A DNA stretch of 39,751 nucleotides from Streptomyces bohaiensis (GTDB lineage: Bacteria; Actinomycetota; Actinomycetes; Streptomycetales; Streptomycetaceae): contig NZ_JAAVJC010000002.1 of the NCBI RefSeq assembly GCF_012033785.1, forward strand, positions 22,812 through 62,562. Direction: 5' to 3'. The stretch's first letter is position 1. Every line of letters begins with the position of its first letter. The translations under genes and the position numbers were made by a program. Under the pieces are notes generated by a model. The model saw only the letters and a program-made list of their open reading frames with translations. It had not been told where the DNA came from and did no database searches. Below are positions 17,800 to 35,385 of the stretch, one piece after another.

Positions 17800-17954
17800 G
17801 GGATGGGGTACGACGTGCGCGGTGATAGCGGCCGTGGTGGTGGGCGCTCAGCCCGGATTCGGTGGGCGGAACGGCCGCAGGTCTCCCGGCCGGTGGCCCG
17901 CCGGGGCGACGCGGACGCAATGCCCCAAAGGGTGTCCCCCGCGCGGACCATCCC
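17800..17954 (-). pseudogene. Possible LysM-domain gene remnant at the trailer of array 1
   Basis: On the minus strand the sequence just after the last repeat reads VRAGDTLWGIAS, an excellent match to the start of a LysM peptidoglycan-binding domain. Further on, ATGRETCGRS then AHRIRAERPP resembles the usual continuation around the NRHRIGADP segment. No start, no full domain and no continued frame are seen. It could be a decayed host gene, or the first part could be a terminal spacer taken from a LysM gene (see findings). Confidence 0.3.
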
Positions 17955-18018
17955 CGCGGGTGCGGGGGCGACGTCAGCGGCGGTATGGGCACCGGCAAGA
18001 CCAACGGACCATCCCCGC

Positions 18019-18096
18019 GGGTGCGGGTGCGGGTGCGGGTGCGGGTGCGGGTGCGGGTGCGGGTGCGGGTGCGGGTGCGGGTGCGGGTGCGGGTGC
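18019..18096 (+). repeat. (GGGTGC)13 expansion within a CRISPR repeat
   Basis: The repeat at 18006-18105 is 100 bp instead of 28. The outer parts are normal (GGACCATCCCCGC and GGGGGCGAC) and the extra 72 bp are twelve additional copies of the GGGTGC unit. Flanking spacers are of normal length. Confidence 0.97.
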
Positions 18097-18518
18097 GGGG
18101 GCGACAGCGGGGCGGCGGAGTCCGTGGCGACGGCTGCCGGACCATCCCCGCGGGTGCGGGGGCGACCTCGGGGCCATGCTCACCGCCCGCACCGACAGCG
18201 GACCATCCCCGCGGGCGGGGGCGACGCGCTGCTCGCGTTCAGCGGCGACCGCGTCGTCGGACCATCCCCGCGGGTGCGGGGGCGACCCCGCAACCACCAG
18301 CTCGCCCCGCACAGGCGGCGGGGACCATCCCCCGCGGGTGCGGGGGCGACATCACCAACCGGTGGGAGCGCGGCGCACTGTTCGGACCATCCCCGCGGGT
18401 GCGGGGGCGACGGCGGTGGGCCGGTCGTAGCCCTGCCGCTCCAGGGACCATCCCCGCGGGTGCGGGGGCGACCCGCCGTCGACCTTCTGCTCCCAGTAGT
18501 AGAGGGGACCATCCCCGC

Positions 18519-18572
18519 GGGTGCGGGTGCGGGTGCGGGTGCGGGTGCGGGTGCGGGTGCGGGTGCGGGTGC
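18519..18572 (+). repeat. (GGGTGC)9 expansion with altered repeat end
   Basis: The repeat at 18506-18575 is 70 bp. After nine GGGTGC units it ends directly in GAC, so the usual GGGGGC block has been replaced by a GGGTGC unit. On the crRNA strand this changes the 5' arm of the hairpin. Confidence 0.95.
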
Positions 18573-19804
18573 GACGTCCGACTCACCGGCCACTCGATGC
18601 GAGCCGGGGGACCATCCCCGCGGGTGCGGGGGCGACCCGGAGGAGGCGGGCGGCGATGTCAGCAACCCGGGACCATCCCCGCGGGTGCGGGGGCGACGTG
18701 TCCTGCCTGACGCACAGCACCGCGTGCGGGGGACCATCCCCGCGGGTGCGGGGGCGACTTCACCGGGGCCGACGCGGCGTTCCAGGAGTTCGGACCATCC
18801 CCGCGGGTGCGGGGGCGACCGGTCGACAGCACTTCGCTCACGGGTGCCGAGCGGACCATCCCCGCGGGTGCGGGGGCGACCGCTGCCAGGTCGGCCAGGT
18901 GGGGATCCACCCAGGACCATCCCCGCGGGTGCGGGGGCGACGACCGGCGCGGCCTGCAGGTCGGCATGGACATCGGACCATCCCCGCGGGTGCGGGGGCG
19001 ACCACTTCTCGGTGATCTCGTCGGGGAGTGGTTCCGGACCATCCCCGCGGGTGCGGGGGCGACCTCACTGCCGAACACGACGTCGCGTGCGGCTACGGAC
19101 CATCCCCGCGGGTGCGGGTGCGGGGGCGACGGGCGGTTGGGCACGGGTCCAGCTCCGGACCCGGGACCATCCCCGCGGGTGCGGGGGCGACATCAAGCGG
19201 GCGGCCCCGCTCAGCATGAACGCGGGACCATCCCCGCGGGTGCGGGGGCGACGAGCAGCTTCATCCGCCCGATGACCCAGTCGTAGGACCATCCCCGCGG
19301 GTGCGGGGGCGACAGCCCGAGCGTCTCCTCGCCGGTCGCGCCCAACGGACCATCCCCGCGGGTGCGGGGGCGACGTGCCGCCCTGCACACCGACCAGGAG
19401 CAGCGCCGGACCATCCCCGCGGGTGCGGGGGCGACAACGCGGCCGCCTGCGACGCGATGGCGGACGCCGGACCATCCCCGCGGGTGCGGGGGCGACGACA
19501 CGGTGGTCGCGTGCCGCAGGCGCCGCATCGGACCATCCCCGCGGGTGCGGGGGCGACGCCGCGCGCGACGGCGTGGTCGACCCAGGCGCTGGACCATCCC
19601 CGCGGGTGCGGGTGCGGGGGCGACAGGGTCTGCTCAGCGCGCTCGCTCCCATCGTCCGGACCATCCCCGCGGGTGCGGGGGCGACTTCGCGCTCGACGGC
19701 TTTCCCCTGGTCATGGCTGGACCATCCCCGCGGGTGCGGGTGCGGGTGCGGGGGCGACGCCGACCGCGGCACCGCCCACCAGGTCAACGCGGGACCATCC
19801 CCGC

Positions 19805-19852
19805 GGGTGCGGGTGCGGGTGCGGGTGCGGGTGCGGGTGCGGGTGCGGGTGC
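19805..19852 (+). repeat. (GGGTGC)8 expansion within a CRISPR repeat
   Basis: The repeat at 19792-19861 is 70 bp with eight GGGTGC units and a normal GGGGGCGAC end. The adjacent repeat at 19719 has three units, so two neighbouring repeats are enlarged. Confidence 0.96.
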
Positions 19853-20777
19853 GGGGGCGACGCGCCCGAGCGGGAGCAGGAGCGCGTCCCCGCCGGACCA
19901 TCCCCGCGGGTGCGGGGGCGACCTGCCCGGCACCCTCGTGTGGGCCATCACCGGGGGACCATCCCCGCGGGTGCGGGGGCGACCCCCTCCCCAGCAGCGC
20001 CATGAGCTCCTGGCGCGGACCATCCCCGCGGGTGCGGGGGCGACCCTGTTCGGTGTGATGACCGAATTGGCAATGAAGGACCATCCCCGCGGGTGCGGGG
20101 GGCGACCGGTCGGTGGACAACGGGGCCGGCAACCGGCAGGGACCATCCCCGCGGGTGCGGGGGCGACGTGCGCTGGATCTCGGGCATGTCGCCCTCCCTC
20201 GGACCATCCCCGCGGGTGCGGGGGCGACCACAAGACGCGGCTGCATGGCGTCGGCGATATCGGACCATCCCCGCGGGTGCGGGGGCGACCTGACCGGGCG
20301 ACTCGTTCCCTCCCCGCCCCGGGGACCATCCCCGCGGGTGCGGGGGCGACGGGTGGAACGCGACTGTGGCGGCGGCCCCCGGGGGACCATCCCCGCGGGT
20401 GCGGGGGCGACTCGTGGCCAGTGAAGAGATCGGGGTCGTTCCCGGGACCATCCCCGCGGGTGCGGGGGCGACGGGAGAAGCCGGTTGGCCGGGAGCGTCA
20501 TCCCCGGACCATCCCCGCGGGTGCGGGGGCGACTGCATGGGCCGCTGCCGCTTCCCGCGCTGGGTGGGACCATCCCCGCGGGTGCGGGGGCGACCCGTGG
20601 AGCTGGTGAACCGGGACGCGCTCGGAGGGACCATCCCCGCGGGTGCGGGGGCGACGCCTGCAACGACGTGTTGGTCTGGGTGATCGACGGACCATCCCCG
20701 CGGGTGCGGGGGCGACTCCGGCATCGTCGACCAGCACCCGCCGGAGACGGGACCATCCCCGCGGGTGCGGGGGCGAC

Positions 20778-20845
20778 ACTTGCTGACCTGCGGTGCTAGG
20801 GCGGGAAGGGCGTGTTCAGGGTCGGTTGGTTTTGGCGATGGTGCG
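20778..20845 (-). promoter_or_regulatory. Leader of CRISPR array 1
   Basis: Sixty-eight base pairs between the cas2 stop and the first repeat. Read on the minus strand it contains CCAACCGACCCTGAACACG and ends AGCACCGCAGGTCAGCAAGT against the repeat. Both blocks recur in the leader of array 2, which supports their being Cas1-Cas2 docking or promoter elements. No convincing -10/-35 pair was found. Confidence 0.75.
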
Positions 20846-21127
20846 TCATGGGTGACGGTTGCGGGCGGAGAGGATGAGGCCGTCGTAGTCGACAGGTCTC
20901 CAGCGGTCGCGGCCGGCGGTTCGGGTGGCCCATCCTTGTTCGTTGGCTGCGGGTTCGACCAGGACGGCTTGGCCATCGCCGATGCGGTCGGCGAGGAGTG
21001 CCCAGAGGCGGTCTCGGACTCGGCGGCTGGGGTTTCCTACAAAGACGCCGGCGTTGACTTCGACCATCCAGCGTGTGAGGTGGCCGCGGAGGCCCTCCGG
21101 GGCTGCGATGAGGACGATGACGGTCAC
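20846..21127 (-). CDS. cas2: Cas2 (type I-E), CRISPR adaptation
   Basis: A 93-residue protein of the Cas2e (ygbF-like) type: MTVIVLIAAPEGLRGHLTRW, then VEVNAGVFVGNPSRRVRDRL and ending near YDGLILSARNRHP. It forms the dimer that bridges two Cas1 dimers during spacer capture. The GTG start overlaps the cas1 stop by four bases. It is the last gene of the cas operon, and array 1 begins 68 bp after its stop. Confidence 0.95.
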   Translation of the reverse strand: MTVIVLIAAPEGLRGHLTRWMVEVNAGVFVGNPSRRVRDRLWALLADRIGDGQAVLVEPAANEQGWATRTAGRDRWRPVDYDGLILSARNRHP

Positions 21128-22149
21128 CGGGGTTGGTCCGGTGTCGGGGGCTGGTCGAGGTCCGGTCCGATGACGGCGATGTGCTGTTCTCCCATGTCTG
21201 CCTGGGTGGTGGGCGGGTCCATGGGGTGGGTGGCCCAGTTGACGCCGGCGGGGACGGAGCCGCTGCGTTCGTCCCAGAGTTCGCTGGTCTCTGGGGCTTC
21301 GTAGTCGGTGCCGTCGGGCGTGAGGAGTGCCTTGATGTCCTGGACGATACGCGAGAGGAGTTTGGTCTCGGCGATCTTGTCGCGTAGGCCGATGCGTGCG
21401 TCGCGTTCTTCGGTGAGGCCTTTGGCCGCCAGGTCGAAGGCGAGGGGGATGGTGTATTCGGCCTTGTAGAGGTCCGCTATGTCGAGGGTGAAGGAGATCG
21501 CCGATCCGGTGTGGACGACGCCGAGTCCCGGGCTGGCGCCCAGGCCCACGATGACGGCGTGGCAGATGCCGTAGAGGGCTGCGTTGGCGGCCGACAAGAG
21601 TCGGTTGAGGTCGTCGCCGGCGGCGAACGCGTCACCGGCTTTGTAGACGCGGCCGTCCCAGGGGACGCCGGTGCGCTGGGCGTGGTGCTGGTAGAGCTTG
21701 CGGATTCGGTAGCCTTCGCGGCCGCGGAGCTTTTGCATGGTGGCGGTGGAGACGTCTTCTCCGGGGAAGCGCATGCCGTACATGGCTCGGGCGACGTTGA
21801 GGCGTTCTTTGGGTCGGGTGACCAGCCAGGCTTGGCGGTGGAGGAGTCCTGAGCCGCGGCTGGGTCCGAGGCCGGCGGCGTACATGCGGACGCCTTGTTC
21901 GCCGACCCAGCACATGGCGGTGCCGGAGTCGGCGAGGAGGCGGACGGCGCCGTGGGTGACGCGTGTTCCGGGGCCCAGGAGGATGACGGCGATCATGGCG
22001 GCTGGGACGCGTACGGTTTCGCGTTTGTTGATGATGACGACCGCGTTGTCCTCGCGGTCGAGGTGGCTACGTTCGACGTGGACGCTGGAGACGCGGTCGA
22101 CGATGCGGTGGAGGTCGTGTGGGTCGGCTTTCCACCAGATGTCAGCCAT
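21124..22149 (-). CDS. cas1: Cas1 integrase (type I-E)
   Basis: A 341-residue metal-dependent integrase that inserts spacers at the leader end. Expected active-site residues are visible: Glu145 in GREGYRIRKLYQ, His213 in GVVHTGSAISF and the Asp223/Asp226 pair in TLDIADLYK. The N-terminal beta domain (VSSVHVERSHLDREDNAVVI) is complete. The C-terminus beyond about 300 is a Pro-rich tail. The start overlaps the cas6e stop by eight bases, consistent with one polycistronic message. Confidence 0.96.
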   Translation of the reverse strand: MADIWWKADPHDLHRIVDRVSSVHVERSHLDREDNAVVIINKRETVRVPAAMIAVILLGPGTRVTHGAVRLLADSGTAMCWVGEQGVRMYAAGLGPSRGSGLLHRQAWLVTRPKERLNVARAMYGMRFPGEDVSTATMQKLRGREGYRIRKLYQHHAQRTGVPWDGRVYKAGDAFAAGDDLNRLLSAANAALYGICHAVIVGLGASPGLGVVHTGSAISFTLDIADLYKAEYTIPLAFDLAAKGLTEERDARIGLRDKIAETKLLSRIVQDIKALLTPDGTDYEAPETSELWDERSGSVPAGVNWATHPMDPPTTQADMGEQHIAVIGPDLDQPPTPDQPR

Positions 22150-22987
22150 GGCTGTGGGCGGTTCGGGTGGGCAGCGGGGCGAGGGTGAGCAGGCCGCAGC
22201 CGTATGCCTTCTGGGGGCCGATGCCGTTGAGGAGGTGGGTGGTGAGCTGTGTGGGGTCGGTGATGCGGAGGTGGCCTTCGAAGGTCACGGTGTGGAAGGT
22301 GACGCGTCGGCCGCTGGGGTTCTTGGTGAAGGACTGTCGTTGGCGGGCGCGGATGCGGACTTCGCGGGCGGGGTTGGGGTCCGGGTGGTGGGGGTCTGGT
22401 GTGTTCTGGGGCGTGGCGTGCGGTGTGGTCGGTGCGGGGGTGAGTCCTGGGGCTGCGGGGTCGGTGAAGGAGGTGGGGATGTCGAAGCCCCACTTCTCGG
22501 CGCGGGTGAGGAGCCAGTGGAGTTGGTGGGCTGCGGTGCGGTGGCTGAGGCGGAACCCTCGCGGGCGTTTGCCCGGGTCTGTGTCCGCGCTTTCCAGGCG
22601 TGTGGTTTGTTCCGTGCTGGGTTTGATGGGGGTGTGGGTGTTCTGGACGGGGCTGGCGGTGAGGCGGAAGGCGAACTCGCGGCCGGTGGCGAGTTGGTTG
22701 AGGAGGGGGGTGTAGTCGCGGATGGCGGCGTGGTCGCCGTCGGCGTCGGGCCAGCCGGCGTTCTCCACCAGGTGGGTCCAGTCGGGTTTCGTCGGGGTCA
22801 GGACGAAGAGGTGCGGTCGGTGGGGGTTGTCTGCGTCCAGTCGCCACAGGGTGCGTTCACCGGTGGGTGTGCCGGGGATGCCGCCGGTGACGGCGGCGTG
22901 CATGGCGCGTGGGTTGGCCAGGAGTTTGCGGCTTTCGGCTCGCAGCGGGTTGATGCGGATGCGGGAGAGGTAGGTCATGGCGGTCAC
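22142..22987 (-). CDS. cas6e: Cas6e/CasE crRNA-processing endonuclease
   Basis: A 281-residue Cas6e that cuts the CRISPR transcript at the base of each repeat hairpin and stays bound as part of Cascade. The N-terminus TYLSRIRINPLRAESRKLL is typical. His30 in PRAMHAAV is the likely catalytic His by position, and the C-terminal Gly-rich loop reads GIGPQKAYGCGLLTL. An unusual Pro/Thr/His-rich stretch at about 178-204 (GLTPAPTTPHATPQNTP, then DPHHPDPNP) interrupts the second RRM-like domain. The start is GTG at 22987, overlapping the cas5 stop, or ATG three codons on. Confidence 0.94.
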   Translation of the reverse strand: MTAMTYLSRIRINPLRAESRKLLANPRAMHAAVTGGIPGTPTGERTLWRLDADNPHRPHLFVLTPTKPDWTHLVENAGWPDADGDHAAIRDYTPLLNQLATGREFAFRLTASPVQNTHTPIKPSTEQTTRLESADTDPGKRPRGFRLSHRTAAHQLHWLLTRAEKWGFDIPTSFTDPAAPGLTPAPTTPHATPQNTPDPHHPDPNPAREVRIRARQRQSFTKNPSGRRVTFHTVTFEGHLRITDPTQLTTHLLNGIGPQKAYGCGLLTLAPLPTRTAHSHG

Positions 22988-23823
22988 CAGCCCAGCAGGG
23001 CGAAGGGGTCGTGCCCGGCGTCGGCGTCGGGGAGGTGGTCGTCGGTGGTGTCCGGCCGGGGGAAGCCGGTGGGGGCGGACAGCCAGGTGTGGCGGACGCG
23101 CCGGGTTGTGAAGGTGCGGGCTTGGGGGTGGAAGGAGAGTGGGACGTCGTGGCGTACGTCGTCCCCGGCGGGGTCTTCGAGCGTTGCGGAGAGGTCGATG
23201 CGTGCCGGGTAGACCGGGCGGCCTCGGTTCTGGCGTCGTCCGAGCTGGGCTGCGTAGCGTTCGCGGGCTTGGTGGGTGGCTTGCCAGGGGGTCTCGCGCA
23301 GGGCATCTTCGAGGCTTGTGTGGTGGAGGCCGAGGGAGATGGGCTGGGTGGGTGGGCAGGAGCGGCGGCCGAGCGCCAGGGGGTACATCGGTGCGTGCAC
23401 TGCCTGGTTCAGCGTGGTCAGTAGGTCGGTGGGGCCGGTGACGGCGGCGAGGAAGACGGCGTCCTGGAGGTAGTAGCGGGTGGTGACGTGGGTGTGTTTG
23501 GCCGGCGAGGTCGGCTTCTGGATGCCTTTGGCGTTGACTCCGGCCTGGGGCAGGGGGCGGCCGCGGTAGTCGCTGACGGTGTGGTAGTCGCGCAGGAGGG
23601 TGCCGGCTTGGTCGACGCGGATGCCGAGTCGTAGTTGGTTCAGGTCGTCCAGTGGTTCTTCCCGGTCCTGGCCCATGGCGGCGGCGAGGAGTCCGATGAC
23701 GCCGGATTTGGTGGGTTCGGGGCGGGTGTCGCGGCGGTTGAAGGTGCTGCGGTCGCCCCAGGACTGGAGGGGGCCGGCCAGGCGGAGGAGGAGCACGGCG
23801 CGGTGGGCGGGGGTGTCGGTCAT
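22984..23823 (-). CDS. cas5: Cas5/CasD Cascade subunit
   Basis: A 279-residue type I-E Cas5 that caps the 5' handle of the crRNA. It begins AVLLLRLAGPLQSWGDRSTF, the hallmark Cas5 N-terminus, followed by RRDTRPEPTKSGVIGLLAAA. A later segment FLAAVTGPTDLLTTLNQAV, then MYPLALGRRSCPP, matches the family core. It lies 43 bp after cas7 and overlaps the cas6e start. Confidence 0.95.
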   Translation of the reverse strand: MTDTPAHRAVLLLRLAGPLQSWGDRSTFNRRDTRPEPTKSGVIGLLAAAMGQDREEPLDDLNQLRLGIRVDQAGTLLRDYHTVSDYRGRPLPQAGVNAKGIQKPTSPAKHTHVTTRYYLQDAVFLAAVTGPTDLLTTLNQAVHAPMYPLALGRRSCPPTQPISLGLHHTSLEDALRETPWQATHQARERYAAQLGRRQNRGRPVYPARIDLSATLEDPAGDDVRHDVPLSFHPQARTFTTRRVRHTWLSAPTGFPRPDTTDDHLPDADAGHDPFALLGW

Positions 23824-23866: not shown

Positions 23867-25015
23867 TCACGGGGTGTCCTGCTGGTGGGTGCCGGTGAGG
23901 TGGGTGCGCAGGCGGGACTGGAGGGTGTCGAAGGTGACGGCGGTGCCGAAGGCTGCTTCCAGGTCTTTGGCGGTGGTGCCGGTTTCGGTGTCGAAGGTGT
24001 GGGAGACCGCGGTGAAGGTGGGTGTGTTGCCCCAGTTGCGGACGGCGGCGGTGTGCTCGCGGGCGAGGCGGCGCGCTGAGGCGGCGGCGATGCCGGAGGT
24101 TGCGGTGATGGGTTCTTCGAAGGCGGAGACGAGGTTGACGGGCTGGTCGGAGCGGACGACGACCGCGGCCATGCTCGGGAGTGTGCGGTGGGCGAAGGAG
24201 TTCTGGTAGCCGGTGGGGGCGGAGCGGGCGAAGGAGTTGATGAACTCGTCGACGGCTGCGATGGCTGCCTCTGAGTCGGAGAGGTTGTCGATGAGCTGGT
24301 GCAGGCCGACGGTGGCGTAGCGGTAGAGGGTGGCGGAGTTGAAGCCGATGGCGCCGATCATGCCGGCGCCGGTTTCTTCGGTTTCGTTCTCGTCGTCGAC
24401 TGCGGTGAAGTAGTCGAATTCGGCTTCGGTGGCGTGGGTGGACAGGGCGTGGGCGACCTGGGTGGCGGCGTCGACGTTGAGGGCGGGGATGTCGGCGACC
24501 ATGCGTCCGAAGAGGGCGACATCGATGGGGTGCCCGGTGCGGAAGGCTTCCTGGACGTCGAGGGTTTTGATGTGGTCGGCCAAGGCGGTGTCGTCCTTGG
24601 CGGCGAGGTCGGCGGCCTGGTCGGCGACGAGTGCGGCGACGGCGTTGAGCTGGCGGCGTCCGTAGAAGAAGAGGTAGGCGGTGTCGCCTGCTTTCTTGCC
24701 TGCGCTGATTTTCAGCGGGGCGAGGAGGGCGGCGGCCAGCCGGGCGGCGGCTTCGGCGTCAACGTCGGAGGTCTCGACGATGCGGTCGGTGAGCTTCCCG
24801 GCGATGCGCTTGGTGCGGGTGGCCAGGTCCTGTTCCGGGACGCGGCCGGCGAAGTGCAGGCGGGTGGCGCGCTTCCATGCCTGGGAGGAGACGCGGGATC
24901 GGCGCACTCCCCCGAAGTAGGCCTCCTTGGGGTTGCCCTGGTCATCGCGGTTGAGGTTGGCGGGGGGAACGGTCTGCAGGAGGTGGATGTCGATGTAGGT
25001 GGGTGCGTGGGGCAT
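23867..25015 (-). CDS. cas7: Cas7/CasC Cascade backbone subunit
   Basis: A 382-residue I-E Cas7 that polymerises along the spacer part of the crRNA. The N-terminus YIDIHLLQTVPPANLNRDDQ, then EAYFGGVRRSRVSSQAWKRA, is diagnostic. Also visible are ADIPALNVDAATQVAHALST and FINSFARSAPTGYQNSFAHR. It is separated from casB by an unusual 180-bp gap containing 16-bp tandem units, whereas most other junctions in this operon overlap. Confidence 0.95.
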   Translation of the reverse strand: MPHAPTYIDIHLLQTVPPANLNRDDQGNPKEAYFGGVRRSRVSSQAWKRATRLHFAGRVPEQDLATRTKRIAGKLTDRIVETSDVDAEAAARLAAALLAPLKISAGKKAGDTAYLFFYGRRQLNAVAALVADQAADLAAKDDTALADHIKTLDVQEAFRTGHPIDVALFGRMVADIPALNVDAATQVAHALSTHATEAEFDYFTAVDDENETEETGAGMIGAIGFNSATLYRYATVGLHQLIDNLSDSEAAIAAVDEFINSFARSAPTGYQNSFAHRTLPSMAAVVVRSDQPVNLVSAFEEPITATSGIAAASARRLAREHTAAVRNWGNTPTFTAVSHTFDTETGTTAKDLEAAFGTAVTFDTLQSRLRTHLTGTHQQDTP

Positions 25016-25105: not shown

Positions 25106-25201
25106 GCGGGCCGGGCCGGGTCCGGGGTGGTTCAGGTCAGGGGCTGGCCGGGTCCTGGGCGGTTCAGGTCCTGGGCGGTTCTGGTCAGGAGCGGTTCAGG
25201 C
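25106..25201 (-). repeat. Tandem 16-bp units between casB and cas7
   Basis: From 25106 to 25201 the sequence falls into a 16-bp register. The best copies on the plus strand are CCTGGGCGGTTCAGGT (25154), CCTGGGCGGTTCTGGT (25170) and CAGGAGCGGTTCAGGC (25186), with weaker copies at 25122, 25138 and 25106. The last overlaps the casB stop codon. Confidence 0.8.
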
Positions 25202-25804
25202 GTCCTGACTGGGGCGGGGGCCCCAGGCGTAGTAGGCCAGCCCCCAAGCCCTGCGCACGCGCTGCCGGGCCTGGGGGTGGCGCCAGTCGTTGATGTCCTG
25301 CGCGAGCCGGCTGTAGTCCAGCGGCTGGCCGATGCTGCGCAACTGGGTGATCAAGCCGCGCAGCCGGTACAGCAGGGTCGCGACGGAAGTGGCGTTGACC
25401 AGAGCGGCCACCCGTCGGTCGAGCGCGTCCTCGCTGACGCTGTCGTGGTGACGCAGGCCCCGCAGTGCGTCACCGAGGTTGGTGCCGGGCTTGTGCATGG
25501 GGGTCTGTCGGCTCTGCTGGTGCAGGCCGAACAGGGACAGAGCTGCGTGCTCGGCGTCCAGCTGTGCGGTGCGGCGGCCGTCGGTCGGGGTGACGTAGTA
25601 CGGCCACAGCGCGGGGACGGTGCCGGCGGTCTGGCCCAGGCCGGAGCGCATGGCCGCGAGGTCCTGCCCGGGAGGCACCAGCTTCGCGCCGTTGGTCTTG
25701 TCGATGCGCCAGGTCCCGTCGGCCCTGACGCGTTGCTCCCAGTAGGGGCGCGGAGCCGTGTCGTCGCTGCGGGTGGGGTCGGGGGCGGTGGGCATGGACG
25801 TCAT
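25196..25804 (-). CDS. casB: CasB/Cse2 (Cas11) Cascade small subunit
   Basis: A 202-residue helical small subunit; two copies usually line the Cascade belly and stabilise the R-loop. Recognisable stretches are RPYWEQRVRADGTW, LFGLHQQSRQTPMHKPGTNL, GDALRGL and DWRHPQARQRVRRAWGLAYY. The ATG overlaps the casA stop by four bases. Family assignment rests on these segments and on its place between casA and cas7. Confidence 0.92.
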   Translation of the reverse strand: MTSMPTAPDPTRSDDTAPRPYWEQRVRADGTWRIDKTNGAKLVPPGQDLAAMRSGLGQTAGTVPALWPYYVTPTDGRRTAQLDAEHAALSLFGLHQQSRQTPMHKPGTNLGDALRGLRHHDSVSEDALDRRVAALVNATSVATLLYRLRGLITQLRSIGQPLDYSRLAQDINDWRHPQARQRVRRAWGLAYYAWGPRPSQDA

Positions 25805-27588
25805 CCTTCGGTGGTCGCGGAGACAGAGGAGTGGTGTTCGTCCCGGTTCCCGCCGGCGGCCTCGGCGGCTTCCTTGCGGGCGGCGGCTCGGGTGGCGGCC
25901 CGGCGGACGAGGATCGCGTCCAGACGGGCGCGGAAGCTCCGTTCAGCGTTGCTGAGCCGGTAGACGCGTTCCTTGCCGTCCTTCTCCACCGTGCGTCCGG
26001 TGAAGACCGCCGGGCCGGCGCCTGCCAGGACGTGCTCGGCCACCTGCCATGCCGCGTGGGCTGCCCGCTGCTCCCATGCGAGGAGGCCGCGGTCGGCGGC
26101 GTCGAAGTCCTCGTCGATCGTCCGCAACCCGGCGAGGAGGCGGCGCATCACCGGGTCCAGGGCGTGGAGGAGGGTGTCGCCGGGGCGCTGGCCCTGGTCC
26201 CACGGGATCGGGTCGCCGCCCGCGGCGCGTCGAAGGTCGGCGGACAGGTTGTTGACTGCGGACGCGAGGTGTTCGGCCTGCTCGGCTGCGGTGAGGAGCG
26301 CCCCGTAGACGAGGCTGCCGGGGTTCAGCGCGGTGATCGGCAGGGGGATCTCGTCGAAGAAGGTGTCCTCGACGACCGCGGACTGGTTGCCGTACACGAC
26401 ACCGGTCAGCTGCAGCTGCAGGGGGTAGTTCTCCGGTGTGCTCGCGGCGGCGAGCTGCGCGAGGAGGACGCTGGTGGCGTAGCCGTCACGTGTGGCGCCG
26501 GCGTCGGTGGTGTCGCGGTCGGTGGTCAGGAGTGCTTCCATGCCGCGCCAGGCCGCTTTGCCGGGCTGGTGGCGGCGGGGCCGGGCGGCAGGTGCGGGTC
26601 GGCGGTTCGCGGTCTGCTTCTTGGCTCGTGCGGCCGCGGAGTCCAACCGCCAGGTGGTGTGGGGCTCGTCCTGCGGGGTGCCGTCGAGGCGGTCGCCGGC
26701 AGCCACGATCACCTGGGTGACCCGTACCCCGGACGGCGTGTCCTGCGGGAGGAGCCGGACACGCCTGGCCTGCCAGGTCCACAGGTCGAGCAGCCCCCGC
26801 GCGGCACGGGTCTGCCACTGCGCTGTCGCACACGACAGGGCGTCCGCTGCCCGGCTGCCGGTGGAACGGCGGCGCCACTGCGGCAGGTCACCGGTCGACA
26901 CCGCCCTGTCGTAGGGAATGTTCAGCAGGAGCGTCTCGTAGACGGTCCTGCCCATGGGCATCACCACACCCAGCTGACCCAAGGGGCCCGTCGGGTTCCC
27001 CGTGGTCTTCCCGGCCTTGGCCTTGGGATCCCCCACAGCGCCGGTCTTGATGGCGGCGGTGTCCCAGCAATGGGTGTGCAGCAGCCAGCGGGCCGCCTGC
27101 GCAGGCGTCAGCTCCAGCACGTCCGCTTCGCTCCTTGAGGAGAACAGCGGCACGTTGTTCCCGGTCGCGGCACTCGCCACCAGCAACGCCGAGCCCTTCG
27201 TCTCTCCCTTGGCCGTCCGCAGGTCGCCGACCTGCGCAAACGGGTCGTCAGCAGCGAACAGGTCGAAGCGGCCGTAGTGCTCGTCGAGGTACGACTCCAG
27301 CGCTGCCCGCTGCCGGGGCGGGAACGCCCCTGCGTGGAACCACTCGGCCCACTGCTGCCGACTCGGGTACCCCAGGGCGTCGACAACGATCGGCAGCAGC
27401 ACCTGGCGGAACATCGCGGGCCGCAGGGTCGGTACCTCGACGGCCACCTCGGCGAAGAGATGAGCGTCCAGCAGCAGCTCCCTGGCCCCGACCTCCCGCC
27501 CCTCGCTAACGCCGCCCCGGCCGGCATCACCAGAGGTGGCGACCGGTGTCGCCAAGGCCCAGGGCTGACTGAGCAGGTTGAAGCTCAC
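25801..27588 (-). CDS. casA: CasA/Cse1 (Cas8e) Cascade large subunit
   Basis: A 595-residue large subunit that reads the PAM and recruits Cas3. I chose the GTG at 27588 because it follows CAGGGAGAG and gives the typical start SFNLLSQPWAL; the open frame upstream to 27825 is not family-like. Family landmarks include DLFAADDPFAQVGDLRTAKG, LLHTHCWDTAAIKTGAVGDP and GVVMPMGRTVYETLLLNIPY. It starts 233 bp after cas3, the widest gap in the operon. Confidence 0.95.
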   Translation of the reverse strand: MSFNLLSQPWALATPVATSGDAGRGGVSEGREVGARELLLDAHLFAEVAVEVPTLRPAMFRQVLLPIVVDALGYPSRQQWAEWFHAGAFPPRQRAALESYLDEHYGRFDLFAADDPFAQVGDLRTAKGETKGSALLVASAATGNNVPLFSSRSEADVLELTPAQAARWLLHTHCWDTAAIKTGAVGDPKAKAGKTTGNPTGPLGQLGVVMPMGRTVYETLLLNIPYDRAVSTGDLPQWRRRSTGSRAADALSCATAQWQTRAARGLLDLWTWQARRVRLLPQDTPSGVRVTQVIVAAGDRLDGTPQDEPHTTWRLDSAAARAKKQTANRRPAPAARPRRHQPGKAAWRGMEALLTTDRDTTDAGATRDGYATSVLLAQLAAASTPENYPLQLQLTGVVYGNQSAVVEDTFFDEIPLPITALNPGSLVYGALLTAAEQAEHLASAVNNLSADLRRAAGGDPIPWDQGQRPGDTLLHALDPVMRRLLAGLRTIDEDFDAADRGLLAWEQRAAHAAWQVAEHVLAGAGPAVFTGRTVEKDGKERVYRLSNAERSFRARLDAILVRRAATRAAARKEAAEAAGGNRDEHHSSVSATTEG

Positions 27589-27821
27589 AACTCTCCCTGA
27601 ATTTCGGAGTCTTAAGCATTTGGCAGTGTTGCAGCTCACCTCGCACCCGCGCGGCGAAAGTGCGAAACTCGACCAGCCCCCGCACCAACCGGAAAGAAGC
27701 CCTCCGGAAGAAGGCGGGGATGATCCCTTCGGCGTCTTGACCCGAACGGTCGCCCCCGCCCACCGCGGGGACCCCGGGCGGGTGCACACCACGGCACCCG
27801 CCCGGAGAAACGCCCGACGCA
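27589..27821. other. Gap between cas3 and casA
   Basis: The 233-bp interval has no gene of its own. In other I-E loci a promoter for the Cascade genes lies between cas3 and casA, so one is plausible here. The stretch around 27690-27720 has related purine-rich copies (CCGGAAAGAAG and CCGGAAGAAGG) but no clear promoter boxes. Confidence 0.4.
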
Positions 27822-30794
27822 TCAACGCCGCGCCGCGCCCGCCGCCTCCAGCACCAAGCCGAGGTCGGCGTCATAGCGCACCGACCGATCACCGAGCTCT
27901 GCTCTGCCGTCCGTATCGAGAACCAGCGCCGGGCTGTAACGCAACCGCGCATCCCCCCGCCACCCGGGCAGCGGCAACAGCTCCTGCGCCACCGCCTTCG
28001 TGCAGGACGGCGGCAAACGCACAGTGCCCGCCAGCACATCATCGAGCAGCCCCTCGGCCACGTCCCCGTTCACGGTCAAGGCACGCCCCGACAGCGTCCG
28101 GTAACCTCCCTCAGCCCCCACCACGAGGATGACCTCCACGCTGGGATCCCCGTCACGGACCACCGCCTGCAGGACACCCGCGTCGTCCGAAGGGGGCAGC
28201 GCCGCACGGTGCAGACCCGCCAACGTCGCGCTCTCCCGATCACCCCGCCGGGACAACAGAAACTTGACGGCCGCATCCGCGCGCTCACCGAGCTCACGCA
28301 CATACACCTCGCGGGCCGACTCCATGTCATCCGCCCAGGCCGCCGGCACCCCGCCACCTGCGCCCTCGTAGCCGGCCGCAACCAGCGACGGAACCTCACC
28401 CGGAACCGACCAACCCCGCCCCCCTCCGCCCGCCGCCCCCACCAGCGCAGCAGCCCGCAACAGCAGGTACCGCCCGTAGATGCCCTCCGAAGCCCCCAGA
28501 AACCGCGGCACCGCCCCAGACCCCTCACCCCCCGGGGAAGCAGCATCGAAGCCGGTCACCACCACCCGCGGTTCCCGAAGCCGCGCCGGACGAGCAACAC
28601 CGTCATGGCGATGCAGCCGCCCGATCCGCTGCAGCAACAGATCGATCGGCGCCAAGTCGGTCACCAACACATCCGCATCCACATCGAACGACTGCTCAGC
28701 CACCTGAGTGGCCACCACCACCAACCGTCCCCCCTCACCCAAACTGCCGTCATCGGGCCGCAACGCACTCAACAACCGCAACACCTCAACGGTCCGGTCC
28801 GCACGCGGCCCCACAGCGATACGCCCGTGCAACAACACAACCCGCCCATCGACCCGCCCACGCAACTCCTCGTACAGACTCTGCGCCCGGCCCACCGTGT
28901 TGCGAATGACCAGCGCCCGACCCCCCTCCGCCAGCGCATGCTCCAGAAAGTCGCCCACCCCACGATCCGCCGCCTCCTGCACCGCGACCTGGCGCTCACG
29001 CGTCGCCCCCGGCCCAGCAACAGCCTCCGGCAGCAGCTCCACCCGCACCCTCAGATCCGCCCGCCAACTCCCACAGTCCTCGACAAGAAACCCTGGTTCA
29101 CCCCCCGGCCCCATCCACGCCGCGGTCACCGACGGATACCCCGCCGGCTCCGGCAAGCCCGGCACCTCGTACTCCTCCCGCGACGCCGCCCCCGCCACAT
29201 ACGCACCGACCAACGCCCGCCGCTGACCCGGCGGCAACGTCGCCGACAACAACACCACCGGCACCCCCGCCTGCCCCAACCACCGCAACCCCTCCCCCAG
29301 GAACTGCGACATGTAGACATCCGCCGCATGCACCTCATCCAGCACCACAACCTTGCCCACCAAACCCGCCATCCGCAGCATCACGTGCTTCGTACGAGTC
29401 GCCGCAAACAACAACTGATCAATAGTGCCGACCACAAACGGACACAGCAGCCCCCGCTTCGCCCCCAAAAACCACTGCGCCGGACCCCGCGCCGCCACCT
29501 CTCCCCCAACCCCCCCGACCGCCGCACCAGCCCCGTACGGATCGTCCTCACAACAATCGCCATACTCATCCACACCACCGAACTGGGCCTCAGCATCACG
29601 CCGCGCCCCATCCACCAGCCCCCGCCACTCCCTGTTGAACATGCGCTTCCCATGCAGCAACGCCACCCGGGAAGCCAACCCACCATCAACCCCACCCACC
29701 CACCCCCGCACACTCTCGAACATCGGATCGCACGTCGCCTGCGTCGGCATCCCCACAAACACCCCATCCGCCCCGAACCGCGCAGCCAACACCTCAGCCG
29801 CCAACAACGCAGCCTTCGTCTTCCCCTCACCCATCGGAGCCTCGACCACCAACAACCCCGGACACTCCATCCGCCCAGCAGCCTCCACAACCATCACCTG
29901 CGACGACCTAGGAACCTCCCCAAACCGCACCCTGAAAGCCCCCGGCCCCGGCTCAGCCAACACCCCCCACCCACCACACAAACCCAACGCCCCCCACGCC
30001 CGCTCCGCCCGAAGCCGCGCACCCCCCAGCGTCACCCGACGCACATCATCAACCCCACCGAAATGCTGCTCATCGCTGGCGATCCAGTCCGCCATCACGA
30101 TCAGCCCACTCATATGCAGCTGGAAGGCCCGCGAGGGCACGACGACCGGCGCAACAGCAGCCAGCCCACCGAAGCCGAGCTCCCGCGAGAAACGCTCCAC
30201 CAGCGCCCGCTGCACCTGCGCCCACCGAGCACCACCCTCCAACTGCCCCATCGCCCTACGCGACGGCGTCAGCTGACCCTCCTCCGGGAAACGCCCGTGG
30301 TGCCCCGCGACCAGCGGCCACACCCAACCAACATGCCGCTCATCCCACCCCGCGGCCGGTAGCAGCCGCCGCACCACGAAGCCACCGGCGCAGTCGTGCC
30401 TCCACCGGGACCTCGCCACCGCAGCCTCGTTCCAGCTGAGTCCGGCAGCGCGAACCTCCGCCGCGCCCTTCGGCCATAACCGCTGGAAAGCCGGAGTCGC
30501 TTTCCCGCAGTCGTGGACTCCACAGAGCCAAGCGAAGAACAGCCTGCCCTTACCCGCTCCGCCGGCGACCTCATCCAGCATCTGTTTCGTGGACGGCGCC
30601 AGGAACCCGTCCCACATCCGCTCGGCAACCGCCGCCGTGTCCAGAAGGTGCGACAACAACAAGTTCTTCCGGCCGCCGCCCTTCTCCTCAGACTTCCCCC
30701 ACAACACACCAAGCAACAGATCGACATCCCCGCCCCCTAGCGGCTGCTCTCGCCCCACCCCGCCACACTCCCGCCTCCGGCTAACCTGAGCCAC
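27822..30794 (-). CDS. cas3: Cas3 helicase-nuclease (type I-E)
   Basis: A 990-residue HD nuclease fused to an SF2 helicase that degrades the target after Cascade binding. HD-domain residues seen: His49 (LSHLLD), His94-Asp95 (GVHDCGKATPAFQ), His133, the His-His pair in VAGHHGRFP near 164, and Asp236 (ADWIASDE). Helicase motifs: EAPMGEGKTKAALLA near 318, LDEVHAADVYMSQFL with DEVH at 486-489, LLSATLPPGQ near 515, and QRIGRLHRHDG near 755. All appear intact. The start is GTG without a strong RBS; a start slightly downstream, before LLLGVLWGKS, is possible. It is the first gene of the cas operon and diverges from array 2. Confidence 0.96.
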   Translation of the reverse strand: MAQVSRRRECGGVGREQPLGGGDVDLLLGVLWGKSEEKGGGRKNLLLSHLLDTAAVAERMWDGFLAPSTKQMLDEVAGGAGKGRLFFAWLCGVHDCGKATPAFQRLWPKGAAEVRAAGLSWNEAAVARSRWRHDCAGGFVVRRLLPAAGWDERHVGWVWPLVAGHHGRFPEEGQLTPSRRAMGQLEGGARWAQVQRALVERFSRELGFGGLAAVAPVVVPSRAFQLHMSGLIVMADWIASDEQHFGGVDDVRRVTLGGARLRAERAWGALGLCGGWGVLAEPGPGAFRVRFGEVPRSSQVMVVEAAGRMECPGLLVVEAPMGEGKTKAALLAAEVLAARFGADGVFVGMPTQATCDPMFESVRGWVGGVDGGLASRVALLHGKRMFNREWRGLVDGARRDAEAQFGGVDEYGDCCEDDPYGAGAAVGGVGGEVAARGPAQWFLGAKRGLLCPFVVGTIDQLLFAATRTKHVMLRMAGLVGKVVVLDEVHAADVYMSQFLGEGLRWLGQAGVPVVLLSATLPPGQRRALVGAYVAGAASREEYEVPGLPEPAGYPSVTAAWMGPGGEPGFLVEDCGSWRADLRVRVELLPEAVAGPGATRERQVAVQEAADRGVGDFLEHALAEGGRALVIRNTVGRAQSLYEELRGRVDGRVVLLHGRIAVGPRADRTVEVLRLLSALRPDDGSLGEGGRLVVVATQVAEQSFDVDADVLVTDLAPIDLLLQRIGRLHRHDGVARPARLREPRVVVTGFDAASPGGEGSGAVPRFLGASEGIYGRYLLLRAAALVGAAGGGGRGWSVPGEVPSLVAAGYEGAGGGVPAAWADDMESAREVYVRELGERADAAVKFLLSRRGDRESATLAGLHRAALPPSDDAGVLQAVVRDGDPSVEVILVVGAEGGYRTLSGRALTVNGDVAEGLLDDVLAGTVRLPPSCTKAVAQELLPLPGWRGDARLRYSPALVLDTDGRAELGDRSVRYDADLGLVLEAAGAARR

Positions 30795-30932: not shown

Positions 30933-33900
30933 GTCGACCCCGCACCCGCGGGGATGGTCCGTTGGTGATGCGGCTGCGGTTTTCGGTCCGCTTGTCGACC
31001 CCGCACCCGCGGGGATGGTCCGTGGTTGTCTGCGTTCGGATCGGACTTGCCGTGGTCGACCCCGCACCCGCGGGGATGGTCCCCGACGTGACCACCCCGA
31101 CCGACCCGACCACCCGTCGACCCCGCACCCGCGGGGATGGTCCGCGGGAGAACTTCCACACCCAGATCTCGCCGACGTCGACCCCGCACCCGCGGGGATG
31201 GTCCGAGTGGCAGCCCACCGGGCCGCCGGCAGGCGACGTCGACCCCGCACCCGCGGGGATGGTCCGGTGCCGGTGATGAAGCTCTGCTCGATGTCCCTGT
31301 CGACCCCGCACCCGCGGGGATGGTCCTGCACGTGGCAGCGACATCGTGGAGGCCATGGTGTCGACCCCGCACCCGCGGGGATGGTCCCGTCTACCGGCCG
31401 CTCCAGGCGATGGTGCGGCGGTCGACCCCGCACCCGCGGGGATGGTCCCTCGCCGGGGTTCTCGCCGTCGGCGTCCCCGCGGTCGACCCCGCACCCGCGG
31501 GGATGGTCCGTCGAGGAGCTCCATCAGATCACCTCCAGGTAGGTCGACCCCGCACCCGCGGGGATGGTCCGCGACCCAGCGCCGACCGGTCGACCGCGGC
31601 CTGGTCGACCCCGCACCCGCGGGGATGGTCCGATCCATCAGGTCGTCTACGCGGGCTCCTCCCAGTCGACCCCGCACCCGCGGGGATGGTCCCTCGGGGT
31701 GCCCGACGGGCTGTCGGGCCCGGAGGTCGACCCCGCACCCGCGGGGATGGTCCGGAGGTCCGAAATGGACGACGAACTGACCGCGCGTCGACCCCGCACC
31801 CGCGGGGATGGTCCGTCGGCCAGCTCGGACCGGCGGGCGGCGGCCGAGTCGACCCCGCACCCGCGGGGATGGTCCGAGCGGCGCCTGATGGAGCGGCTTG
31901 CGCCGGAGGTCGACCCCGCACCCGCGGGGATGGTCCACCGCACGTGGCGCGCTGGCACAGCTCAAGGCCGTCGACCCCGCACCCGCGGGGATGGTCCGGC
32001 CGATCTGCCACAGCGCATCACCGACCGCGCGTCGACCCCGCACCCGCGGGGATGGTCCGTCGATGGCGCAGGTCCAGGCCGTCACGCAGGCGTCGACCCC
32101 GCACCCGCGGGGATGGTCCGTCGATGGCGCAGGTCCAGGCCGTCACGCAGGCGTCGACCCCGCACCCGCGGGGATGGTCCGGACAAAGGAGCGCTCGCCC
32201 GCGAGGTCCGCATGTCGACCCCGCACCCGCGGGGATGGTCCCCGGCGCTCTGCACTGCTCATTCGCCCTCCTGGGTCGACCCCGCACCCGCGGGGATGGT
32301 CCGTTTGAGGCCGAGGGCTGGCTCCCGATGGGCCTGTCGACCCCGCACCCGCGGGGATGGTCCGGCCCCTGGAGCGCGGCCATCGTGCTGGCGGAGGTCG
32401 ACCCCGCACCCGCGGGGATGGTCCCAACCAGGGCGTCGTCGTCGGCCACCGACCGGTGTCGACCCCGCACCCGCGGGGATGGTCCGCCATCCGGGTTGTT
32501 CTCCGGCAAGGAGTTCAGGTCGACCCCGCACCCGCGGGGATGGTCCTCGCCATGCGGGCGACGCGCCGGGCGTCCCGCTGTCGACCCCGCACCCGCGGGG
32601 ATGGTCCGCGCGCGGGCAGGTGGTCCTCGATGAGATCACCGTCGACCCCGCACCCGCGGGGATGGTCCCACGGTGGCGTCCTTGGTGACCAGGCTGATGC
32701 CGTCGACCCCGCACCCGCGGGGATGGCCCCTCCGCGCCGCTCCAACTCCGCGAAGGTGAAGAGTCGACCCCGCACCCGCGGGGATGGCCCCTCCGCGCCG
32801 CTCCAACTCCGCGAAGGTGAAGAGTCGACCCCGCACCCGCGGGGATGGTCCCCCGATGCCGCCGCCCAGCAGCTCCCCGATGCTGTCGACCCCGCACCCG
32901 CGGGGATGGTCCGTGGCCGCTACCGATGAGGCGCCTCACCGCGCGGTCGACCCCGCACCCGCGGGGATGGTCCCCAGCGGTACGACGCCACATACGTGAT
33001 CGACCGGTCGACCCCGCACCCGCACCCGCACCCGCACCCGCACCCGCACCCGCGGGGATGGTCCCGGCATGTCGTCGGCGCCGTCGCCCCAGATGCCGTC
33101 GACCCCGCACCCGCGGGGATGGTCCAGAGGCGGGGGCGGTGTTTCCAGCGACGGTGAAGTCGACCCCGCACCCGCGGGGATGGTCCGGGGGTGATCCTCG
33201 CCCTTGACGCTGGTCTGGTGTCGACCCCGCACCCGCGGGGATGGTCCGTGGAAGCTCCGACTCACCTCTCCGCCACCCGCGTCGACCCCGCACCCGCGGG
33301 GATGGTCCCCCCGCCGAGTTCGGCGGTCAGGTCCCGCGCGGGTCGACCCCGCACCCGCGGGGATGGTCCGTCGATCCGCACGGTCATGGTCTGTTCGGTA
33401 GGGTCGACCCCGCACCCGCGGGGATGGTCCGTCGATCCGCACGGTCATGGTCTGTTCGGTAGGGTCGACCCCGCACCCGCGGGGATGGTCCGCTGGGACG
33501 AGTGGGAAGGCCAGCTCGCGCTCCGTCGACCCCGCACCCGCGGGGGTGGTCCGACCCGCTCACTCGTCCGCTGGTCGAGGCGCTCGTCGACCCCGCACCC
33601 GCGGGGATGGTCCCTCCCTGCGCGGCAAGGGCCGCCCGCGCCGAGCGTCGACCCCGCACCCGCGGGGTGGTCCCCTGCTGTCGATCCTCGCCCCCCGCCC
33701 CACGGCGTCGACCCCGCACCCGCGGGGATGGTCCTTTTCCGGTGACGCGGGCACCCGCGGCTACCGTGTCGACCCCGCACCCGCGGGGATGGTCCCTCCG
33801 GTCAAGGCGCCCCCGCGCCAGCAGCAGCGTCGACCCCGCACCCGCGGGGATGGTCCCGTGGGCGGGATGGGCAGGATCTCGGTGCCGGCGTCGACCCCGC

Positions 33901-35385
33901 ACCCGCGGGGATGGTCCGTAGCTCACCCGCGATACGCGCGTACTTGGGTCGTCGACCCCGCACCCGCGGGGATGGTCCCGCTTTGACGTGCGCGCTTTTG
34001 CCGGAGCCGGGGTCGACCCCGCACCCGCGGGGATGGTCCCTGACCCCGGAGCGGCAGGAGATGCTGCTGCGGGTCGACCCCGCACCCGCGGGGATGGTCC
34101 GCAAGATGGGAATGGGGCGCACGGCCCGCCGACGTCGACCCCGCACCCGCGGGGATGGTCCCCGCGCCTGCCATTCGAGGATCAGGCACGTGGCGTCGAC
34201 CCCGCACCCGCGGGGATGGTCCGGGCTTCGAGAACGGTGCGGACCGCGCGCTGGGGTCGACCCCGCACCTGCGGGGATGGTCCGATCGGCGGCGCGACCA
34301 TCAGCACGCCCAATGTGTCGACCCCGCACCTGCGGGGATGGTCCGTCGTTGCCTCCGGGGGTGCGCCGCTCGCCGCGGTCGACCCCGCACCTGCGGGGAT
34401 GGTCCGACCGAGTTCGCAAGGTTCCTCACACAGCTCACGTCGACCCCGCACCTGCGGGGATGGTCCGCCTGAGCCCGACAGGTCCCCCAGTTCCACGCGG
34501 TCGACCCCGCACCTGCGGGGATGGTCCGACCGAGGCCCTCCGGGGCGGGGCGCGAGACGAGTCGACCCCGCACCTGCGGGGATGGTCCCTCGGCCGGGGG
34601 GCCGTCGGTCGCTCGCAGGGCGTCGCCCCCGCACCTGCGGGGATGGTCTCCCGCAGGGTCGGCAGCCCCCGGTATCCCCGGCGTCGCCCCCGCACCTGCG
34701 GGGATGGTCCGGGCGGTCGGTCGCCGTGGCCTACCACCCGGAGGTCGACCCCGCACCTGCGGGGATGGTCCCGCGGGTCCAGGGCCTTACCATCCACCCC
34801 TGAAGTCGACCCCGCACCTGCGGGGATGGTCCCTCGACAAGGACGTGCGGGCGGAGACGGACGGCGTCGACCCCGCACCTGCGGGGATGGTCCCGCCATC
34901 AGCCTCGGCTCCTTGATCAAGAGCACGTCGACCCCGCACGCGTGGGGATGGTCCCTCGAGCAGGTTGCCCAGTGCGCCCTGGCGGCGGTGTCGACCCCGC
35001 ACCCGCGGGGATGGTCCGTGCTGCCGTCTCCGGTACGCCCTTACGCGGTAGTCGACCCCGCACCCGCGGGGATGGCCCCCCCCCGGGCGAAACCGGGTAC
35101 GAAACCTGCGGCGGTCGACCCCGCACTCGCGGGGATGGTCCCCCGGCACGGCGGCCGGGTCGGGTGGTGCGGACGTCGACCCCGCACCTGCGGGGATGGT
35201 CCGAGGATCGGCATCAACCCGTGCGCGACGGCCTGGTCGACCCCGCACCCGCGGGGATGGTCCGCGGCGCCGCCGCAGCCCGGCCGACACCACAAAGGCG
35301 ACCCCGCACCTGCGGGGATGGCCCCCGCCTCGTGCCGGTGCACCAGCCGCGGGAGACGTCGCCCCGCACCCGCGACCCTGCGGGT
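30933..35385 (+). CRISPR. CRISPR array 2, type I-E, 73 repeats including a degenerate last one
   Basis: The 28-bp repeat begins GTCGACCCCGCACCC and ends GCGGGGATGGTCC on the plus strand, the crRNA strand. It differs from array 1 only at the fifth base (A here, C there). The period is 61 bp with 33-bp spacers; two distal spacers are 35 bp. Thirty-five repeats run from 30933 to the enlarged one at 33007, then others at 33098 and on to 35297. The last, at 35358, is badly degraded. The repeat at 33647 lacks one A, and that at 33525 reads GGGGGTGG. From 34256 to 34866 eleven repeats carry ACCTGC instead of ACCCGC, and two of these (34622, 34683) have the array-1-like fifth base. Leader-distal repeats are the most variable. 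Three spacers occur twice in adjacent positions. Confidence 0.98.
33018..33053 (+). repeat. (ACCCGC)6 expansion within a CRISPR repeat of array 2
   Basis: The repeat at 33007-33064 is 58 bp. It has six ACCCGC units where one is normal, with intact ends GTCGACCCCGC and GGGGATGGTCC. This is the same unit as in array 1, read on the other strand. Confidence 0.97.

What the first reader, a model, noticed from the sequence alone, without database searches (positions are those of the whole stretch)
17945..19861. Hexanucleotide (GGGTGC)n expansions inside CRISPR repeats of array 1
Six of 44 repeats contain extra GGGTGC units (13, 9, 2, 2, 3 and 8 copies instead of 1), while the flanking spacers keep their 33-bp length. 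The unit lies exactly at the hairpin loop, so most enlarged repeats keep their stem and gain loop length. CRISPR repeats are normally length-invariant, so microsatellite-like growth within them is striking. The leader-proximal repeats are all regular, suggesting that expansions arise after acquisition by slippage.
Basis: seen in the sequence. Interest (0 to 1): 0.82.

Follow-up and report, generated by a model that had tools for sequence, protein, structure and literature searches.

The report
Stretching repeats in a CRISPR array
In this bacterium (probably a Streptomyces) several CRISPR repeats, which normally all have the same length, have grown an internal six-letter stutter of up to 13 copies, most likely by DNA copying slips at a motif that stutters elsewhere in such genomes too; it is rare in CRISPR arrays and its effect on immunity is untested.

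Summary
Array 1 (17945-20777) has 44 repeats; six carry 13, 9, 2, 2, 3 and 8 GCGGGT units instead of 1, each followed by a 33-nt spacer. The arrays flank a complete type I-E cas operon.

Best explanation: ordinary replication slippage. The hairpin's loop and 3' stem form a two-unit seed, GCGGGT|GCGGGG. The same hexamer forms tracts of at least 4 units in 82 of 120 other genomes of the genus, so it is a common microsatellite. Inside CRISPR it is rare: 0 expanded beside 406 copies of the same repeat core in sampled congeners. One exact-pattern scan of 84,980 species found one more record, a two-repeat relic in Streptomyces zagrosensis that shares array 1's unusual repeat end (GGGGGCGAC). That end lengthens the 6-nt self-similarity and may explain why array 1 is the outlier (6 of 43 seeds; array 2, 1 of 58). 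The arrays' opposite orientation is a confounder.

Folding predicts that each enlarged repeat keeps a hairpin and its 5' handle, so processing is probably tolerated. The leader-distal trend is not significant. Assembly error is unlikely but not excluded without reads.

The parts
17945..20777 (-). CRISPR array 1, 44 repeats / 43 spacers, transcribed on the - strand (leader at the right end; inferred)
   Evidence: orientation inferred from the repeat's reading, the cas2-adjacent flank and the flank shared with array 2
18006..18105 (-). expanded repeat, 13 GCGGGT units (100 nt)
18506..18575 (-). expanded repeat, 9 units, ends GCGGGTGCGAC
19097..19130 (-). expanded repeat, 2 units
19591..19624 (-). 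expanded repeat, 2 units
19719..19758 (-). expanded repeat, 3 units
19792..19861 (-). expanded repeat, 8 units
18200..18225 (-). contracted repeat (-2, loop of 2 nt)
18322..18350 (-). repeat with +1 C in the C run
20078..20106 (-). repeat with +1 G in the G run (in the leader-proximal third)
20778..20845 (-). short leader between cas2 and array 1
   Evidence: aligns with the flank of array 2 over about 58 bases
20846..21127 (-). cas2e
   Evidence: TIGR01873 above cut-off
21124..22149 (-). cas1e
   Evidence: TIGR03638 above cut-off
22142..22987 (-). cas6e (pre-crRNA endoribonuclease)
   Evidence: TIGR01907 above cut-off
22984..23823 (-). cas5e
   Evidence: TIGR01868 above cut-off
23867..25015 (-). 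cas7e
   Evidence: TIGR01869 above cut-off
25196..25804 (-). cse2 (cas11)
   Evidence: TIGR02548 above cut-off
25801..27825 (-). cse1 (cas8e)
   Evidence: TIGR02547 above cut-off
27822..30794 (-). cas3
   Evidence: TIGR01587 and TIGR01596 above cut-off (the full-length model NF007248 is below its own)
30933..35324 (+). CRISPR array 2, 72 repeats (mainly GGACCATCCCCGCGGGTGCGGGGTCGAC in - strand reading), transcribed on the + strand (inferred)
33007..33064 (+). expanded repeat of array 2, 6 units, not in the finding

Best explanation
These are microsatellite expansions inside type I-E CRISPR repeats, made by replication slippage after the repeats were laid down. The repeat's hairpin (CCCCGC-GGGT-GCGGGG) happens to give a near-tandem pair GCGGGT|GCGGGG with a perfect 5-nt offset-6 match; a nascent strand that slips by one unit adds a GCGGGT, and each added unit makes the next slip easier. 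In array 1 the following GCGAC adds a third partial unit and raises the offset-6 similarity to 8 matches around one mismatch, which may be why that array is the hot one. Expanded tracts also carry a quadruplex motif on the G-rich strand, which could add instability (inferred). The enlarged repeats stay because a CCCGC unit always remains to pair with the 3' stem strand and the 5' handle after the Cas6e cut is untouched, so spacers on both sides probably still give crRNAs (inferred from folding, not measured).
For: Anatomy: the 7 expansions insert whole GCGGGT units at one site and the following spacers are 33 nt; the other three array 1 deviations are -2, +1 and +1 indels. General microsatellite unit: (GCGGGT)4 or longer in 82 of 120 other congeners, reversed-pattern control in 11 of 120; in five congeners 21 of 769 seed sites outside the counted arrays carry 3 or more GCGGG. 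No gross genome-wide excess: 84 vs 78 TRF arrays and 3 vs 4 hexamer tracts in 281 vs 280 kb, own vs control. Variant effect: array 1 6 of 43 seeds, array 2 1 of 58 (p 0.04), own genome elsewhere 1 of 102 (p 0.003 against array 1); offset-6 matches 8 for array 1 and the S. zagrosensis repeat, 5 or fewer for the other five forms tested. Independent case: S. zagrosensis relic, neighbour repeat ending GGGGGCGAC, 33-nt spacer, then a repeat of six units, two of them GCGGGC. Hairpin kept: the five GCGGG bases pair with probability 1.0 in all 6 expanded array 1 repeats; array 2's MFE also keeps five pairs. Replication misalignment is already proposed for spacer-repeat units (PMC8047081, passages).
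Against: No reads or second isolate; one strain. The variant explanation rests on one array plus one relic and is confounded by orientation: the G-rich strand is + in array 1 and - in array 2, and orientation to the origin matters for GGGGCC tracts in bacteria (PMC4661408, abstract and section headings). The first slip from a perfect 5-nt match is equally open to the common ...GAGCAG repeats, yet none is expanded beside 406 normal copies in congeners, fewer than at sites outside arrays (p 0.0002), so age, homogenisation or selection also act. Array 2 alone does not differ from other arrays (p 0.125). Tri- and tetranucleotide runs are somewhat commoner in the own genome (479 vs 374; 21 vs 10), so a mild genome-wide tendency is not excluded. 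Leader-distal bias not significant. The sixth G of the 3' stem strand pairs less in expanded repeats (0.28-0.72 against 0.99).
Confidence: 0.8

Rival explanations
1. Assembly or sequencing artefact: the draft (547 contigs) mis-assembled or stuttered at GC-rich repeats, and homopolymer +1 changes are base-calling errors.
For: Draft genome in 547 contigs; two single-base homopolymer gains in the same array; one non-CRISPR GCGGGT tract lies at a contig end.
Against: Seven sites with different neighbouring spacers and mostly different copy numbers; the four tracts that TRF lists are under 90 nt; eight cas ORFs uninterrupted; equal tracts occur in congeners including one held as a 9.17 Mb contig (G013); independent case with point changes in S. 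zagrosensis on a 0.86 Mb contig.
Confidence: 0.08
2. One expansion arose once and spread between repeats of the array by gene conversion or unequal recombination.
For: Two neighbouring repeats (19719, 19792) are both expanded; array 2 shows three tandem spacer-repeat duplications, so misalignment between repeats happens here.
Against: Copy numbers differ (13, 9, 2, 2, 3, 8), normal repeats lie between expanded ones, and the 9-unit repeat has a different 3' border.
Confidence: 0.1
3. The expansions are selected: longer loops tune crRNA processing or abundance of particular spacers, a contingency-type switch within the array.
For: Long tracts persist (up to 13 units) and the changes are confined to the loop region with the 5' handle and spacers kept.
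Against: None expanded in sampled congeners with the same repeat core (406 normal copies); the same unit expands outside CRISPR; no data on crRNA levels.
Confidence: 0.05

Closest known systems
Type I-E CRISPR-Cas (cas3-cse1-cse2-cas7e-cas5e-cas6e-cas1-cas2) with 28-nt repeats
   Same: gene set, 28/33 repeat-spacer periodicity, hairpin repeat
   Different: 7 of 116 repeats (44 + 72) carry internal hexanucleotide tracts
Indel-bearing or degenerate CRISPR repeats as annotated by CRISPRDetect (PMC4869251, passages)
   Same: insertions and deletions in single repeats are a known class
   Different: here the insertion is one exact unit repeated up to 13 times at one site in seven repeats; the passages seen do not describe this
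Bacterial microsatellites / slipped-strand mispairing; C9orf72 GGGGCC tracts as a G-rich hexamer analogue (PMC4661408, abstract and headings; quadruplex comparison recalled)
   Same: tandem growth of a short G-rich unit
   Different: located inside CRISPR repeats, where the palindrome itself supplies the seed
Duplication and loss of whole spacer-repeat units (review PMC8047081, passages)
   Same: replication misalignment between direct repeats in an array
   Different: acts within one repeat, leaves spacers untouched

Membership tests
type I-E CRISPR-Cas locus | cas3, cse1, cse2, cas7e, cas5e, cas6e, cas1e and cas2e in one operon | tested here: met
   8 of 8 proteins have a NCBIfam Cas model above its curated cut-off (cas3 through its two domain models)
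type I-E CRISPR-Cas locus | regular array of palindromic 28-nt repeats with unique spacers | tested here: met
   array 1: 35 of 44 repeats perfect, 42 of 43 spacers 33 nt, one 35; array 2: 70 of 72 repeats 28 nt, three spacers duplicated
type I-E CRISPR-Cas locus | crRNA production from the array | not testable with these tools
   no RNA data
microsatellite (simple sequence repeat) expansion | perfect head-to-tail copies of a 1-6 nt unit with variable copy number between sites | tested here: met
   TRF period 6, 98-100% matches for the four long tracts, the 2- and 3-unit ones not listed by it as period 6; copy numbers 2-13
microsatellite (simple sequence repeat) expansion | length polymorphism between isolates | not testable with these tools
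   one genome per species is held
microsatellite (simple sequence repeat) expansion | same unit expands at unrelated places | tested here: met
   82 of 120 other congeners have tracts of at least 4 units; own genome has one outside the arrays

The most novel reading that the evidence does not exclude
The 6-nt step is functional by accident: Cas7 packs on crRNA in 6-nt steps, so crRNAs upstream of enlarged repeats, when Cas6e takes the nearest CCCGC unit as the stem, carry extra 6-nt segments before the 3' hairpin and could assemble lengthened Cascades, giving one array a graded set of effector sizes that changes by slippage. A milder form: the loop of an I-E repeat is a neutral site where arrays accumulate a slippage clock. 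Cas7f 6-nt packing and the statement that I-E complexes accept other spacer lengths are from PMC7296934 (passages); the rest is inference.
Probability: 0.07. Interest if true: 0.8.

Novelty: new variant of a known kind. Interest (0 to 1): 0.5.

Why it matters
CRISPR repeats are usually treated as fixed-length. These arrays show that a palindromic repeat can contain its own microsatellite seed, give a natural series of loop lengths (4, 10, 16, 34, 46 and 76 nt) on which to test how much loop Cas6e and Cascade tolerate, and offer a within-array marker of replication slippage. Finders that expect constant repeat length could misjudge such repeats (inference).

Tried and rejected
Strong mutator genome: not supported; TRF density in 281 kb of own non-array DNA is like that in 280 kb of seven congeners (84 vs 78 arrays), and hexamer tracts are 3 vs 4, though tri- and tetranucleotide runs are commoner in the own genome (479 vs 374, 21 vs 10). 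CRISPR-only motif: rejected; the unit is a common microsatellite of the genus. More CRISPR cases: an exact 25-base scan of genome contigs found one record (contigs under 3 kb and genomes near the own one may be missing); viral contigs gave 1 and 28 records, none with neighbouring repeats of an array; a loop-agnostic search for one extra unit gave 5 hits in 393 other class genomes, none a tandem hexamer by sequence. The array 1 repeat form had no exact match in plasmids or viral contigs, and was not among the listed places of 391 other genus genomes (13 places of G217 and G378 not listed); 393 class genomes, partly the same ones, gave one related form with another loop. Phage targets: no convincing spacer match for array 1, best E 0.07; array 2 was not searched. 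Leader gradient: not significant. Literature: the listings showed no title or abstract on tandem hexamers within CRISPR repeats; these are top rows only, of open-access PMC only. Weak points: the five genomes behind the background rate were picked among genomes with a tract, so 21 of 769 is an upper estimate, and arrays other than those counted were not removed from it; some of the 406 core copies are single hits, perhaps not in arrays; array 2 was counted as 73 instead of 72 in the test; the 307 regex control matches include two spurious long ones.

Full report
What is there. Two CRISPR arrays flank a type I-E operon in which all eight Cas proteins match NCBIfam models above cut-off. Array 1 has 44 repeats, array 2 has 72. 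Six array 1 repeats hold 13, 9, 2, 2, 3 and 8 GCGGGT units and one array 2 repeat holds 6. Of 43 spacers in array 1, 42 are 33 nt and one is 35. The flanks at the presumed leader ends of both arrays align over about 58 bases, so the arrays are read outward from the operon (inference).

More than chance? The core CATCCCCGCGGGTGCGGGG occurs 90 times in this genome, all in the two arrays, and 406 times in 35 of 198 other genomes of the genus (sum). The one-step-expanded form occurs 7 times here and in 0 of those 198 genomes. In 20 stretches taken from 14 other genomes, 300 of 307 regex matches have the normal 4-nt loop, five differ by 1 to 3 nt and two are spurious.

Is it special to CRISPR? No and yes. 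The same hexamer forms tracts of 4 or more units in 82 of 120 other congeners, against 11 of 120 for the reversed pattern. In five congeners 21 of 769 seed sites outside the counted arrays have 3 or more GCGGG (genomes chosen among those with a tract, so an upper estimate). In this genome 1 of 102 sites outside the window is expanded (none of the window's seed sites lies outside its arrays), 1 of 58 in array 2 and 6 of 43 in array 1. So array 2 is at background, array 1 is above it (p 0.002 against the five genomes; p 0.003 against the own genome), and the sampled congeners' arrays are below it (0 of 406, p 0.0002), perhaps because repeats are young, homogenised or under selection.

Why array 1? 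Its repeat ends GGGGGCGAC, a form not seen among the listed places of 391 other genus genomes and, with this loop, absent from 393 class genomes. It gives GCGGGT|GCGGGG|GCGAC, with 8 offset-6 matches against 5 in array 2 and in the GAGCAG and GAGCAC repeats. The one other record found in an exact scan of 84,980 species, Streptomyces zagrosensis, has a two-repeat relic: the first repeat ends GGGGGCGAC, a 33-nt spacer follows, and the second repeat has six units, two of them GCGGGC. This pairing of repeat form and expansion is suggestive. It is confounded: the two arrays face opposite ways, and the orientation of GGGGCC tracts to the origin matters in bacteria (PMC4661408, abstract and headings only). 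The array difference is p 0.04 by seed sites and p 0.01 by all repeats.

Mechanism. Shown: unit, site, copy numbers, intact spacers, background microsatellite. Inferred: slippage by one unit on the seed, faster growth with length, possible help from quadruplexes. All 7 expanded repeats contain a quadruplex motif or form one with the first bases of the next spacer; one other such motif lies in the arrays (31105-31130). The 9-unit repeat, which ends GCGGGTGCGAC, is what a forward slip through GCGGGTGCG/GCGGGGGCG would leave, or else a G to T change.

Consequence. In the RNA (C-rich strand) the five GCGGG bases of the hairpin's 3' strand stay paired with probability 1.0 in each expanded array 1 repeat; the sixth G falls from 0.99 to 0.28-0.72. 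The partner slides among CCCGC units, so either the normal stem with a large loop or a near stem with a longer 5' arm forms. [quoted passage not shown] coli system (PMC5965380, passages); cut site and handle lie 3' of the insert. Processing of the downstream crRNA should be near normal; the upstream crRNA gains 3' sequence. Not measured.

Age. The leader-proximal 15 repeats have no hexamer growth, but with 6 events this is P 0.067, and the mean-rank test gives 0.22.

Artefact. Different spacer contexts, mostly different unit counts, short tracts, uninterrupted cas ORFs and an independent case with point changes argue against it; single-base homopolymer gains in the same array and the lack of reads keep it open.

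Verdict. Probably real, unusual, mechanistically ordinary: a common hexamer microsatellite that the palindrome of one repeat form seeds inside a CRISPR array. Functional meaning is unknown and probably small.

Noticed in passing
window 32058-32180, 32729-32851, 33369-33491: Array 2 holds three tandem duplications of a spacer-repeat unit (identical neighbouring spacers); none seen among the array 1 spacers printed.
   Followed up: partly
window 34256-35324: The leader-distal 18 repeats of array 2 include the 13 with another loop (GCAGGT); two of these (starting at 34649 and 34710 on the - strand) have the GGGGGCGAC end of array 1. A further degenerate repeat-like stretch lies by eye near 35355-35385.
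   Followed up: partly
window 25119-25200: A 16-nt tandem repeat (about 5 copies) lies mostly in the gap between cse2 and cas7e.
   Followed up: no
window 1-503: A 99-bp tandem repeat, 5.1 copies, 92% matches, at the window's left end.
   Followed up: no
L021 7-52 (G000:C182): A (CCCGCA)n tract outside CRISPR at a contig end, upstream of a stretch that looked by eye like an A-factor-type (hotdog) gene; recalled resemblance, not searched.
   Followed up: partly
L062 about 12147: A congener repeat with a +3 loop insertion (GGGCGGC), a small loop-length change in another array.
   Followed up: no
L095 183-206: A viral-collection contig holds an isolated CATCCCCGCGGGTGCGGGTGCGGGG stretch without an array.
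   Followed up: partly
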